DNA of 64,000 nucleotides from Mycobacterium sp. MS1601 (GTDB taxonomy: Bacteria > Actinomycetota > Actinomycetes > Mycobacteriales > Mycobacteriaceae): positions 4,402,001-4,466,000 of the forward strand of contig NZ_CP019420.1 of NCBI RefSeq assembly GCF_001984215.1, given 5' to 3'. This document shows, piece by piece, positions 21,284 through 37,572 of the stretch (its first letter is position 1; each line of letters begins with the position of its first letter). Under the pieces are notes generated by a model. The model was not told the DNA's origin and did not search any database. It saw nothing but the letters and a program-made list of their open reading frames with translations. The position numbers were made by a program, and so were the translations under genes.

Positions 21284-22024
21284 GTGTCTGACCCGGTCTT
21301 CTACCTCGACGCCGTTCCCGACGCCGGGGCGCTGGCCAGCCTCGACGGTGACGAAGGCTTCCACGCGGCCAGCGTGCGCCGCATCCGGGTGGGTGAGCGC
21401 ATCGTTCTCGGCGACGGCGCCGGGGTTCTGGCCGACTGCACCGTCGAAACCGTCGAGAAACGGGGACTGCAGGCCCGGGTGATGGACCGCCGCGTGGAGC
21501 AGGCTCCAACGCCCACCGTCACCGTGGTGCAGGCCATCCCGAAGGCCGAACGCTCCGAACTGGCGATCGAACTGGCCACCGAAGCCGGCGCCGACGCGTT
21601 CGTGGCCTGGCAGGCAGCCCGTTGCGTTGCCCGGTGGGATGGCCCCAAGGCCGACAAGGGCTTACGACGTTGGCGTGCGGTCGCCCGCTCGGCGGCGCGC
21701 CAGTCCCGCCGCGCCTTCATCCCCGTGATCGACGGGGTGGCTTCCACCGCCGACGTCGTGAAGAACCTGGATGGCGTGACGCTGGCGCTGCATGAATCCG
21801 CAACTGTGCCGTTGACGAACATCGATCTGGCGCAGGCGCATTCGATCACCTTGGTGGTCGGCCCCGAGGGTGGGCTCACCGGGGACGAGTTGAGCGCGTT
21901 GGTGGACGCGGGCGCGCACGTAGTGCGCCTGGGCCCGACGGTGTTACGGACGTCCACCGCGGCGGCCGTGGCGCTGGGGGCGCTCGGCGTGCTCACCGCG
22001 CGCTGGGATCAGTCGGGCATGTAG
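21284..22024 (+). CDS. rsmE: 16S rRNA (uracil-1498-N3)-methyltransferase RsmE
   Basis: A 246-residue SPOUT-class methyltransferase that methylates U1498 of 16S rRNA. An N-terminal PUA-like domain (FHAASVRRIRVGERIVLGDGAG) is followed by the knotted domain with the SAM-binding segments VGPEGGLTGDEL and RLGPTVLRTSTAAAVAL, both diagnostic. GTG 21284 lies 5 bp after dnaJ2, so it is the third gene of the hrcA operon. Its 3' end overlaps the convergent PruA-like gene by 16 bp, the boundary between the conserved backbone and the accessory island. Confidence 0.95.
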   Translation: MSDPVFYLDAVPDAGALASLDGDEGFHAASVRRIRVGERIVLGDGAGVLADCTVETVEKRGLQARVMDRRVEQAPTPTVTVVQAIPKAERSELAIELATEAGADAFVAWQAARCVARWDGPKADKGLRRWRAVARSAARQSRRAFIPVIDGVASTADVVKNLDGVTLALHESATVPLTNIDLAQAHSITLVVGPEGGLTGDELSALVDAGAHVVRLGPTVLRTSTAAAVALGALGVLTARWDQSGM

Positions 22025-23655
22025 GGGTAACGGAAGTCGGTGTCGGGCAGCAGGTTCTCCTTGACGAACCTCCCGCTGACCCAGCGCTGCAGCGACAGCG
22101 GCGAACCGATCTTGTCGTTGGTGCCCGAGGCGCGGGCGCCACCGAACTGCTGCTTGCCGATCGTCATTCCGGCCGGTTTGTCGTTGATGGCCACATATCC
22201 CGCCGCGTCTCGCAGCACGGACAGGGCCTCGCCGATGGCTGCCCGGTCGGTCGCGTACACCGAACCGGTGAGTGCGTAGGGGCTGGTGGAATCCACCAGG
22301 TGCAACATCTGGGTCCACTCCTGATCCGGGTACACGTACACGGTGAGCACCGGACCGAAGAACTCGGTGGTCAAGGTGAAGGCGGTGGGGTCGGTTGACT
22401 CGAAGATGGTCGGTCTGACGAAGTATCCGACCTCTTTGCAGGCTCGGCCCCCGGCGATCACCGTATGCGACGCAAGGTTTTTGGCCGTCTCGATCGCCGC
22501 GGTCACGCGGTCATAGGCGGCTTCGTCGATCAGGGCGCCGACGAAGGTGCGGTGGTCGGCCACATCACCCATCGTCAGCGCCTCGGTCTGCTCGGCCAGG
22601 GATTCCCGGATGGTGGCCCACAGGCTGCGCGGAATGTAGGCACGGGAGGCTGCAGAGCACTTCTGCCCCTGGAATTCGAAAGCGCCTCGGATCAGCCCGG
22701 CGATCACGGCATCTGGATCGGCGGAGACGTGCGCAACGACGGCGTTCTTGCCGCCGGTTTCACCGACCATCCGTGGGTAGCCGCGGTAGTCGTCGATATG
22801 GTCGGCCACTTTCTTCCAGAGCCGGCGGAAGACGGCGGTGGAGCCGGTGAAACTGAGCCCGGCCAGTTCCGGGTGTGCCAGCGCGACGTCGGTGACCAGC
22901 TCCCCATCTCCATGGACGGTGTTGATCACTCCCGGCGGCAGACCGGCCTCGTCGAAGATGCGGCGAACCACATCAGAGCTCACCGCGGACTTCTCCGACG
23001 GTTTCCACACCACGGTGTTGCCCATCAATGCCGCTGTCGCAGGCAGGTTCGCGGCGATGTTGGTGAAATTGAACGGCGTCACCGCGAGCACGAAGCCTTC
23101 GAGCCCGCGTTGGTCGAGATAGTTGTTCTCGCCCTGGACAGACTTCGGTTGGTTGGAGTAGATGCCTTCTGCCCAGAACGAATTGAAGCGCAACAGGTCC
23201 GCGAACTCACAGGCAGCGTCGATCTCGGCTTGATGGAACGTCTTGGACTGGTTCACCATGGTGGCGGCATTGATCTCGTTGCGGTACTTGCCGGTGACCA
23301 GTTCGGCGGCGCGCAGAAACACCGCGGTTCGCTCCCACCAGGGCAGGGTCGACCAGCTTCGTCGTGCCGTGAGGGCGGCTTCGATCGCGGATTGGACGTG
23401 GTGCACCCGGGCAACGCTGCGCTCACCGAGCACCGTGGTGTGATGGTGCGGGCAGACAACAGGTTCGGTTCGGTCTGTCATGAATGTCTCGCCGCCGATG
23501 GACAGTGGAATCTGCTGGGTCAGGCCGGACAGGCGGGTGATTTCCCGCGTGACGCCGCCTGCTTCGACCGATCCGGGACGGTAGGCGCGCACCGGCTCGA
23601 CCTGGGGAATGGGAGCGTGGAAATTTCCGGCGACGGCATGGACCGGGGCACTCAT
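22009..23655 (-). CDS. L-glutamate gamma-semialdehyde (P5C) dehydrogenase, PruA-like
   Basis: A 548-residue aldehyde dehydrogenase of the PruA/RocA group, oxidising glutamate-5-semialdehyde to glutamate with NAD. Visible are the cofactor loop (FTGSTAVFRRLWK), general-base Glu299 in VGETGGKN, nucleophile Cys333 in GQKCSAAS, and family-typical segments (VTPFNFTNIAANLPA, INDKPAGMTIGKQQFGG). It is not next to a PutA-type proline dehydrogenase but 23 bp downstream of a DadA-like oxidase. Mycobacteria usually carry another pruA with pruB elsewhere, so this is probably a paralogue serving the local pathway. ATG 23655 has AGGAG 12 bases upstream. Confidence 0.9.
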   Translation of the reverse strand: MSAPVHAVAGNFHAPIPQVEPVRAYRPGSVEAGGVTREITRLSGLTQQIPLSIGGETFMTDRTEPVVCPHHHTTVLGERSVARVHHVQSAIEAALTARRSWSTLPWWERTAVFLRAAELVTGKYRNEINAATMVNQSKTFHQAEIDAACEFADLLRFNSFWAEGIYSNQPKSVQGENNYLDQRGLEGFVLAVTPFNFTNIAANLPATAALMGNTVVWKPSEKSAVSSDVVRRIFDEAGLPPGVINTVHGDGELVTDVALAHPELAGLSFTGSTAVFRRLWKKVADHIDDYRGYPRMVGETGGKNAVVAHVSADPDAVIAGLIRGAFEFQGQKCSAASRAYIPRSLWATIRESLAEQTEALTMGDVADHRTFVGALIDEAAYDRVTAAIETAKNLASHTVIAGGRACKEVGYFVRPTIFESTDPTAFTLTTEFFGPVLTVYVYPDQEWTQMLHLVDSTSPYALTGSVYATDRAAIGEALSVLRDAAGYVAINDKPAGMTIGKQQFGGARASGTNDKIGSPLSLQRWVSGRFVKENLLPDTDFRYPYMPD

Positions 23656-23678
23656 GGTTCTGGGGTTCTCCTAGCGGA

Positions 23679-36299: not shown

Positions 36300-36309
36300 G
36301 GAGCCTCCG

Positions 36310-37572
36310 ATGACGGCGACACCGCAGGTACTCGATCTGTTCGCCCCGGGTTCCGGCCTCGACACCGACGGCACCTTGGTGGTGGGCGGGTGTCGGCTCG
36401 ACGATCTCGCCGAACAGTTCGGCACACCGGTGATGGTGCTCGACGAGCAGGCACTGCGCCAGCGGGCGCGCGACTACCTGACCGCCTTCGCCAGCAGGTG
36501 GTCGCGTGTCGAGGTGGCATTCGCCTCGAAGGCGTTCCCCTGCACCGCCGTCCAGCGACTGATGGCGCAGGAGGGGCTGTGGCTCGACGTCGCGGGCGGC
36601 GGTGAGATCCACACCGCGCTTGCCGCCGGTGCCGATCCCGCGCGAATGCTGCTGCACGGCAACGCCAAGACCGATGAGGAACTGGAGCTTGCGGTCCGTG
36701 CCGGCGTCGGGCTGGTGGTCGTGGACAACTTCGACGACATCGACCGACTCGAGCGCATCGTGGAGCGCGGGCGTCGGCAGGCGTGCTTGGTGCGCGTCAT
36801 CCCGGGTGTTCAGGCCGATACCCACGCGGCTGTCGCCACCGGACACGACGGCTCCAAGTTCGGGCTCGCCGCTGCCGACGCCCGGGTGGCGATCGCTCGC
36901 ATCCGGCGCAGTCGGCTGCTGCGCTGCGATGGCGTGCACACCCATGTCGGGTCGCAGTTGCTCCACGTCGACCAGTTGGCTGCTGCGGTGGCACCGATTG
37001 CGGAGCTGGGGGAGTTCGACACCTACGACCTGGGTGGTGGTCTGGGGGTGCGCTACACCTACGCCGACGCTCCGCCGTCGCTGCACGAGTACGCCGAGGC
37101 CATGCTCACCAAGGCTCGAGAACTGTTTCCCGCCGGCAGCCGGGTGATCGTGGAGCCCGGGCGCAGCATGGTGGCCACGGCCGGCTGCACCGTCTACCGA
37201 GTGACCACCGTGAAACGAGGACCGGTGACCCACGTCGCGGTGGACGGCGGTATGGGTGACAACCTCGAGGTGTCGCTGTACGGCCAGCGCTTCGAAGCCA
37301 CTCTCGTGTCCCGGGTGGGCGGGGGTACGCAGGTCAGCCTGGTGGGGCGGCATTGCGAGTCCGGTGACCGGCTGATCGCAGGGGTGGCGCTGGACGATCC
37401 GGTGGTCGGCGATCTCGTGGCGGTGCCGGTCACCGGCGCGTACTGCTACACCATGTCCAATCAGTACAACGGGGCCCGACGCATTCCGGTGGTTTTCGCC
37501 TCGGCCGGCCGCGCCCGTCAGGTGGTCCGACGTGACACCTGGGCGGACCTGTTGTCGCGCGACGTGGAGTGA
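36310..37572 (+). CDS. LysA-like diaminopimelate decarboxylase paralogue (fold-type III PLP)
   Basis: A 420-residue alanine-racemase-fold decarboxylase. PLP Lys74 lies in VAFASKAFPC. Other motifs are LDVAGGGEIHTAL, THVGSQ, DLGGGLGVRYT, EPGRSMVA and GGMGDN. The active-site Cys349 is in GRHCESGD, as in diaminopimelate decarboxylase, and the end holds a YxN-type motif (CYTMSNQYNG). This set favours meso-DAP or a close D-centred amino acid as substrate. Housekeeping lysA of mycobacteria lies near argS/thrA, so this is an extra copy and the last gene of the island operon. ATG 36310 has AGGAG overlapping the previous stop. Confidence 0.88.
   Translation: MTATPQVLDLFAPGSGLDTDGTLVVGGCRLDDLAEQFGTPVMVLDEQALRQRARDYLTAFASRWSRVEVAFASKAFPCTAVQRLMAQEGLWLDVAGGGEIHTALAAGADPARMLLHGNAKTDEELELAVRAGVGLVVVDNFDDIDRLERIVERGRRQACLVRVIPGVQADTHAAVATGHDGSKFGLAAADARVAIARIRRSRLLRCDGVHTHVGSQLLHVDQLAAAVAPIAELGEFDTYDLGGGLGVRYTYADAPPSLHEYAEAMLTKARELFPAGSRVIVEPGRSMVATAGCTVYRVTTVKRGPVTHVAVDGGMGDNLEVSLYGQRFEATLVSRVGGGTQVSLVGRHCESGDRLIAGVALDDPVVGDLVAVPVTGAYCYTMSNQYNGARRIPVVFASAGRARQVVRRDTWADLLSRDVE

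What the first reader, a model, noticed from the sequence alone, without database searches (positions are those of the whole stretch)
22009..37572. Accessory island encoding a possible undescribed uptake and breakdown pathway for an amino-acid/amino-sugar conjugate
Seen: a GntR/UTRA regulator with DadA-like and PruA-like genes faces an uninterrupted run of ten genes with gaps of at most 15 bp: dipeptide-type ABC importer, M20 amidohydrolase, HemL-like PLP enzyme, FGGY kinase, NagB-like deaminase, LysA-like decarboxylase. Known: these families import peptides, cut amides, phosphorylate sugars, deaminate amino-sugar phosphates, decarboxylate meso-DAP, oxidise D-amino acids and oxidise glutamate semialdehyde. 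Inference: together they could degrade a molecule joining an amino sugar to amino acids, such as a muropeptide-like or glycated compound, to sugar phosphate, lysine and glutamate. I know of no described pathway with this gene set. The island sits between rsmE and phoH, where M. tuberculosis has other genes.
Basis: partly seen in the sequence, partly recalled or inferred. Interest (0 to 1): 0.85.

Follow-up and report, generated by a model that had tools for sequence, protein, structure and literature searches.

The report
Conserved amino-sugar conjugate degradation operon
A run of genes in this mycobacterium-type genome looks like an undescribed pathway for taking up and breaking down a small molecule in which an amino sugar is joined to an amino acid or peptide, and a two-enzyme core of it recurs side by side in a range of other bacteria.

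Summary
The operon is real. It holds ten genes with gaps of at most 15 bp, facing a GntR/UTRA gene. One flaw was missed: the solute-binding protein lies in two reading frames, while 15 of 15 close relatives (L023-L037) have one frame. The cluster recurs. Of 67 related loci whose FGGY kinase is at least 38% identical, 62 carry the HemL-like enzyme within 3 kb; 0 of 13 weaker FGGY relatives do. In a draw of 394 genomes of the class, both genes occur in the same 11. NagB or an unrelated SIS NagB-II-like deaminase is nearby, never both: 29, 13, 0 of 62; 20 have neither. So the kinase product is probably an amino-sugar phosphate. 45 of 46 loci with a dipeptide importer carry an M20, M17 or S12 hydrolase. 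This supports one catabolic pathway for an amide- or peptide-linked, amino-sugar-like compound. The substrate and the HemL-like step remain unknown. My searches found no description in print.

The parts
25044..25868 (-). GntR/UTRA regulator, divergent from the operon
   Evidence: PF00392 and PF07702; a gntR hit in 60 of 62 AT3+FGGY loci
26029..26043 (.). perfect palindrome GCATACTTAGTATGC, possible GntR operator
   Evidence: the only 0-mismatch site in the window; the word GCATACTAAC lies upstream in 6 of 15 loci L023-L037, other palindromes in others; function inferred
26061..26552 (+). solute-binding protein (SBP_bac_5), first piece
   Evidence: tblastn of relatives: residues 1-160 of L023 match here in frame 3
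26555..27709 (+). solute-binding protein, second piece, other frame
   Evidence: PF00496; residues 162-545 of L023 match in frame 2
27725..28693 (+). dipeptide-type ABC permease 1
   Evidence: NCBIfam Opp/Nik/Dpp B models, below cut-offs
28690..29571 (+). dipeptide-type ABC permease 2
   Evidence: NCBIfam Opp4C and others, below cut-offs
29568..30563 (+). ABC ATPase 1 (OppD-like)
   Evidence: translation with Walker A and ABC signature motifs (motifs recalled, no family scan of this gene); conserved position in relatives
30560..31579 (+). ABC ATPase 2 (OppF-like)
   Evidence: PF00005, PF08352
31576..32760 (+). M20 ArgE/DapE-like amidohydrolase
   Evidence: PF01546, PF07687; TIGR01910 197 bits, cut-off 217.6; in 27 of 62 loci
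32765..34138 (+). AT3: HemL-like class III PLP enzyme, core gene
   Evidence: PF00202, NF000818 413.1 bits over cut-off 398, TIGR00713 396.4 under 527.3; fold nearest PctV and GSAM
34135..35574 (+). FGGY kinase of a distinct subfamily, core gene
   Evidence: PF00370, PF02782; XylB model 206.3 under 380.25; signature PTLV / TWxDxRA / EMD / GEQGALWD
35571..36299 (+). NagB-like glucosamine-6-phosphate deaminase
   Evidence: PF01182; TIGR00502 212.7 under 236.9; NGH..FNEP and DEY motifs kept
36310..37572 (+). LysA-like PLP decarboxylase with changed pocket
   Evidence: TIGR01048 368.9 over 297.9; Glu in place of the DAPDC Arg
23679..24923 (-). DadA-like FAD oxidoreductase, neighbour, probably not part of the conserved pathway
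   Evidence: PF01266; not conserved
22009..23655 (-). PruA-like P5C dehydrogenase, neighbour, probably not part of the conserved pathway
   Evidence: TIGR01236 686.1 over 613.6; pruA-like hits in 4 of 62 loci, two of them only 28-29% identical

Best explanation
A GntR-controlled catabolic operon. Shown by sequence: the gene families, their order, and the recurrence of the core (HemL-like PLP enzyme AT3 plus a special FGGY kinase plus GntR) in distant bacteria. Inferred mechanism: (1) the dipeptide ABC importer brings in a small amide or peptide in which an amino acid is joined to an amino-sugar-like unit; (2) M20 here, or M17/S12 in relatives, cuts the amide; (3) AT3 moves or exchanges the amino group of the freed unit; (4) the FGGY kinase phosphorylates it at its terminal hydroxyl, before or after step 3; (5) the resulting hexosamine-6-phosphate-like compound is deaminated by NagB (or by the SIS-fold NagB-II-like protein in relatives) into central sugar phosphates plus ammonia; (6) the LysA-like enzyme decarboxylates an alpha-amino acid that has no distal carboxylate, probably the amino-acid half of the conjugate. 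DadA and PruA are neighbours, not core parts.
For: 62 of 67 loci with FGGY at 38% identity or more have AT3 within 3 kb, 0 of 13 weaker FGGY relatives do. AT3 at E<=1e-130 and FGGY at E<=1e-60 pick the same 11 of 394 class genomes, own included. AT3 and FGGY pairwise distances correlate, r=0.79 over 60 loci (not corrected for shared ancestry). NagB 29, SIS 13, both 0, neither 20 of 62: two unrelated folds with best named matches of the GlcN6P deaminase / GlmS kind. 45 of 46 loci with the dipeptide importer carry M20, M17 or S12; the exception L059 ends at its contig end. Alternative importers: APC in 12 of 62, CUT1 sugar ABC in 2, a Liv-type binding protein in L061: the free unit is both amino-acid-like and sugar-like. 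LysA-like with the dipeptide importer in 25 of 26. Kinase pocket motifs differ from the xylulokinase type (GQMHG to xxPTL, extra EMD).
Against: No substrate is known and no enzyme was assayed. 20 of 62 loci have neither deaminase within the stretch; of 11 genomes checked, G304 and G320 show neither NagB nor a NagB-II-like frame, only GlmS-sized ones. The own NagB misses the curated nagB cut-off, and the three SIS proteins scanned miss the NagB-II cut-off by far. Five of 67 loci have the kinase without AT3; in four the contig starts within about 2.1 kb of the kinase, in L068 3.3 kb before it. AT3 of the same clade sits in Roseomonas and Aureimonas plasmids without a kinase of this subfamily. 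The own solute-binding gene is split between frames. Accessory genes were counted anywhere within up to 10 kb of the kinase, not only in one operon.
Confidence: 0.58

Rival explanations
1. Glycated amino acid pathway: the substrate is an Amadori or Heyns product (sugar attached to an amino acid, free or in a peptide). FGGY phosphorylates the sugar and NagB or SIS acts as deglycase; AT3 and the LysA-like enzyme work on the released amino acid.
For: APC, CUT1, Liv and dipeptide importers all suit such molecules; FGGY kinases generally act on ketoses and known deglycases are SIS proteins (both recalled).
Against: The SIS example L075 matches GlmS and NagB-II (217 and 207 bits) far better than fructoselysine-6-phosphate deglycase (29 bits); the other two examples likewise. 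AT3 would then serve only a downstream amino acid, yet it is the close partner of the kinase.
Confidence: 0.17
2. Peptidoglycan-derived muropeptides: D-amino-acid peptidases free the stem peptide, and AT3 plus FGGY convert de-acetylated muramic acid to glucosamine 6-phosphate.
For: S12 serine hydrolases in 32 of 62 loci, M55 D-aminopeptidase in 2; amino-sugar phosphate end point; AT3 keeps the Arg that holds a carboxylate in GSAM (role recalled).
Against: The LysA-like protein lacks the Arg seen in the 5 aligned PDB sequences (three DAP decarboxylases) and in 10 of 10 other LysA copies that could be read. No recurrent gene in the loci was recognised as a muramidase, MurQ-type etherase or N-acetylhexosamine deacetylase (my reading; no dedicated family search).
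Confidence: 0.1
3. Two or more unrelated functions lie side by side: peptide uptake plus a separate sugar pathway plus a D-amino acid decarboxylase.
For: Upstream parts (M20, M17, S12, LysA-like, importers) vary between loci; DadA and PruA are indeed lineage-specific neighbours.
Against: Tight overlaps of 4 bp, recurrence in several phyla, mutually exclusive deaminases, and hydrolase with importer in 45 of 46.
Confidence: 0.1
4. AT3 is simply HemL and the cluster serves tetrapyrrole or natural-product synthesis.
For: NF000818 subfamily cut-off passed; nearest fold includes PctV.
Against: hemL equivalog cut-off missed; the GSAM gating loop and aromatic residues are replaced by an invariant YWSxH block; another copy in the genome (G000 1143311-1144537, L105) keeps the GSAM motifs; importers and peptidases point to catabolism.
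Confidence: 0.03

Closest known systems
Glucosamine / N-acetylglucosamine catabolism (NagB, NagB-II; recalled)
   Same: Ends in a GlcN6P-deaminase-like step, with NagB or SIS NagB-II-like proteins as alternatives
   Different: An FGGY kinase and a HemL-like PLP enzyme at the core, with dipeptide importer and amide hydrolases; no NagA or PTS gene recognised in the window run
Frl/Gfr/Fra glycated amino acid pathways (recalled; abstract starts of PMC12632257 and of PMC4072780 and PMC12755824 seen)
   Same: Importer, kinase and SIS protein; APC or ABC uptake
   Different: Kinase family differs (FGGY, not PfkB as recalled for FrlD); SIS proteins are NagB-II/GlmS-like; a PLP enzyme is core
Glutamate-1-semialdehyde aminomutase (HemL) and PctV
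   Different: Different gating loop, invariant YWSxH, no Trp67 equivalent (recalled numbering); genome has another GSAM-like copy
[quoted passage not shown]
   Same: LysA family, passes TIGR01048
   Different: Arg of the GGMxDNxR motif replaced by Glu in the window copy and 26 of 26 cluster relatives
Murein tripeptide recycling (Opp/MppA, recalled)
   Same: Dipeptide importer and peptidases
   Different: No DAP-type decarboxylase pocket, no muramic acid enzyme recognised

Membership tests
HemL (glutamate-1-semialdehyde aminomutase) | NCBIfam TIGR00713 equivalog cut-off 527.3 | tested here: not met
   396.4 bits
HemL (glutamate-1-semialdehyde aminomutase) | NF000818 subfamily cut-off 398 | tested here: met
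   413.1 bits
HemL (glutamate-1-semialdehyde aminomutase) | GSAM gating loop and W-G-P / YQAGTLSGNP motifs | tested here: not met
   GLGP and SHSGTYNAN instead; own paralogue L105 keeps the GSAM motifs
HemL (glutamate-1-semialdehyde aminomutase) | aminomutase activity | not testable with these tools
   needs enzyme assay
Xylulokinase (XylB) | TIGR01312 cut-off 380.25 | tested here: not met
   206.3 bits
Xylulokinase (XylB) | GQMHG and GERTPH motifs of the ordinary FGGY relatives | tested here: not met
   AMLPT and GEQGALW in the window; xxPTLV and GEQGALWD in all 10 subfamily relatives shown
FGGY kinase family | PF00370 and PF02782 above gathering scores, FGGY fold | tested here: met
NagB | TIGR00502 cut-off 236.9 | tested here: not met
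   212.7 bits
NagB | DEY and NGHxxFNEP active-site motifs (roles recalled) | tested here: met
   conserved over 28 rows, 27 relatives and the window
NagB-II (SIS) in relatives | NF046059 cut-off 430 | tested here: not met
   206.9, 154 and 177.3 bits for three examples
Diaminopimelate decarboxylase | TIGR01048 cut-off 297.9 | tested here: met
   368.9 bits
Diaminopimelate decarboxylase | Arg of GGMxDNxR that holds the distal carboxylate (role recalled) | tested here: not met
   Glu in the window and 26 of 26 cluster copies; Arg in 10 of 10 other copies read (12 such places listed) and in 5 aligned PDB sequences of three enzymes
D-ornithine/D-lysine decarboxylase DokD | NF052544 cut-off 700 | tested here: not met
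   129.2 bits
Fructoselysine (Frl) pathway | FrlB deglycase NF008481 cut-off 430 | tested here: not met
   29 and 30.2 bits for two SIS examples, not listed for the third
Muropeptide recycling | NagZ, AmpD, MurQ or AnmK in the cluster | not tested
   no dedicated family search; none recognised among recurrent families
P5C dehydrogenase (neighbour gene) | TIGR01236 cut-off 613.6 | tested here: met
   686.1 bits
D-amino acid dehydrogenase DadA (neighbour gene) | NF001933 cut-off 383 | tested here: not met
   211.7 bits

The most novel reading that the evidence does not exclude
AT3 is a hexosamine 1,2-aminomutase: it does to a sugar what HemL does to glutamate semialdehyde, interconverting a 2-amino-aldose with a 1-amino-ketose. 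The partner FGGY kinase, of a family that normally takes ketoses (recalled), phosphorylates the amino-ketose, and NagB or a SIS enzyme removes the ammonia. The clade members on Roseomonas and Aureimonas plasmids, beside a phosphatase, a FemAB-like transferase and small EamA-type membrane proteins instead of this kinase, would run the same step in reverse to make the conjugate that the others eat.
Probability: 0.15. Interest if true: 0.85.

Novelty: new variant of a known kind. Interest (0 to 1): 0.6.

Why it matters
If true, it adds an unannotated route by which varied bacteria recover carbon and nitrogen from an amino-sugar conjugate. It gives a function to a separate FGGY kinase subfamily, often named xylulokinase where a name is given, and to a HemL look-alike named aminomutase or aspartate aminotransferase in the plasmid records. 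It also points to a natural compound common enough that draft genomes of only 1.4-1.8 Mb (G294, G262, about 98% complete; the matching bin names suggest lakes, an inference) keep the genes.

Tried and rejected

The grouping of genes is mechanical (ORFs, BLAST, Louvain); some groups were split and some genes hidden by shadow ORFs, so the SIS, M17, S12, APC, CUT1 and M55 counts come from tblastn, the rest mainly from tblastn of the window proteins. The 80 loci are the best of 151 and were found by short exact peptide words of one kinase, so they are not an even sample.
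Full report
WHAT IS THERE. Searches give the open frames, their families. On the minus strand lie a P5C dehydrogenase (22009-23655, TIGR01236 686.1 bits over its cut-off of 613.6), a DadA-like FAD oxidoreductase (23679-24923, 211.7 bits under 383) and a GntR/UTRA regulator (25044-25868). 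Facing them is a run of ten genes up to 37572, with gaps of 15 bp or less and several 4-bp overlaps. It missed that the solute-binding gene changes frame near 26553. Relatives align with residues 1-160 in one frame and 162-545 in another (L023; two further relatives given agree on the second piece), and the 15 loci L023-L037 each show it as one frame of 545-639 codons. This is either a sequencing error or a damaged importer; it was not mended.

CONSERVATION. The kinase finds 80 loci in species genomes (the best 80 of 151 confirmed). I mapped the island proteins on them, grouped the remaining genes, and counted by tblastn. 67 loci have the kinase at 38% identity or more. Of these 62 have AT3 within 3 kb. 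The five without it are L050, L070, L076 and L078, whose contigs start within about 2.1 kb of the kinase, and L068, whose contig starts 3.3 kb before it. None of the 13 loci with a weaker kinase has AT3. By record titles, 9 of the 62 are Pseudomonadota (among them Rhizobium, Hoeflea, Brucella, Acidocella and a Rhodobacteraceae bin), 2 Dormibacterota, 1 Chloroflexi, 1 Acidobacteria, 3 unnamed bacteria, and the rest Actinomycetota (Mycobacteriaceae, Microbacteriaceae, Thermoleophilia and others); many are MAGs whose binning I could not check. In a draw of 394 genomes of the class, AT3 (E<=1e-130) and the kinase (E<=1e-60) occur in the same 11, own genome included. In the genus, 11 of 148 have the kinase. 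In the nine of these fetched afresh the run is seen again, seven in the order of the window and two in a second arrangement without M20, with LysA-like in six of nine; G159 shows the full set (L013). AT3 and kinase distances correlate with r=0.79 over 60 loci, which shared ancestry alone could give.

THE DEAMINASE STEP. 29 of 62 loci have NagB, 13 have a SIS protein whose best named matches are the GlmS isomerase domain and NagB-II, none has both, 20 have neither (SIS families for three examples). With the first count of 11 SIS loci, independence would give no overlap with probability 4e-4, but the loci are related, so this is only indicative. Two unrelated folds that exclude each other, both of glucosamine-6-phosphate-deaminase type, are the best evidence that the kinase product is an amino-sugar phosphate. 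Against it: of 11 genomes checked, NagB or a NagB-II-like frame outside GlmS is found in 9 by my reading of frame lengths, and G304 and G320 show only GlmS-sized frames.

THE UPTAKE AND RELEASE STEPS. 46 of 62 loci have the dipeptide-type importer, and 45 of these have M20, M17 or S12 hydrolases. Single loci add an M55 D-aminopeptidase (L055), an S9 peptidase (L073) and an M61 aminopeptidase (L079) (M55 matches in 2 loci). Of the 16 loci without the importer, 9 have an APC permease and one a CUT1 sugar importer; L061 has a Liv-type binding protein. The free unit thus looks like both an amino acid and a sugar, and the bound form like a dipeptide or amide. These genes were counted within up to 10 kb of the kinase.

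THE LYSA-LIKE PROTEIN. It passes the lysA model. Yet the Arg of the GGMxDNxR motif, present in the 5 aligned PDB sequences (three DAP decarboxylases: 1hkv/2o0t, 5x7m, 1tuf/1twi) and in 10 of 10 other LysA copies that could be read from the eleven genomes (12 such places were listed, two had no locus), is Glu in the window copy and in 26 of 26 cluster copies. 25 of 26 cluster copies go with the dipeptide importer. It therefore probably decarboxylates an amino acid without a distal carboxylate that comes with the imported conjugate. Work on FigC (PMC7857480, passages seen) shows that this clade of decarboxylases accepts varied substrates.

NEIGHBOURS. dadA occurs in none of the 62 loci; pruA-like hits in four, of which two are 49-50% and two 28-29% identical. 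At E<=1e-110 DadA occurs only in the own genome among 148 of the genus. The site between rsmE and phoH is not shared: the ten other genus clusters fetched show no rsmE or phoH match in their 20 kb stretches, and in G401 and G478, which carry the cluster elsewhere, rsmE and phoH lie about 90-120 bp apart.

VERDICT. A real, conserved, apparently undescribed catabolic module. The end (amino-sugar phosphate deamination) and the beginning (uptake and cleavage of an amide or peptide) are supported by context; the substrate and the AT3 reaction are open. Five of ten paper searches aimed at this gene set or at the kinase with amino sugars and found nothing that describes it (listings only); most subscription journals are not covered.

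Noticed in passing
window 26061-27709: The solute-binding protein gene is split between two frames near 26553, beside a CCCCGGG run, while relatives have one frame.
   Followed up: partly
L106 (Aureimonas sp. AU20 plasmid) 7133-13347, L107 and L108 (Roseomonas plasmids) about 7700-15500: AT3-clade enzymes beside a HAD phosphatase, a protein with a weak arginase-family match, an alpha/beta hydrolase, a GNAT protein with a weak FemAB-like match, small EamA proteins and a two-component system; possibly a biosynthetic use of the same reaction.
   Followed up: partly
L110 and L124 (haloarchaeal plasmids): More distant AT3 relatives (about 39-40%) sit with polyamine-type importers, arginine-deiminase-family and FAD oxidoreductase genes.
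   Followed up: no
L055 2737-20225: One actinobacterial bin holds both a CUT1-type and a dipeptide importer, an extra S12 hydrolase, an M55 D-aminopeptidase and M20 around the AT3-FGGY pair.
   Followed up: partly
L068 3348-4820: FGGY kinase of this subfamily without AT3 in the 3.3 kb held upstream or the 10 kb downstream.
   Followed up: no
window 4-10006: Two very long overlapping open frames (1395 and 1484 codons) followed by a 467-codon frame, in the position where siderophore synthase genes lie in M. tuberculosis (recalled); not searched.
   Followed up: no
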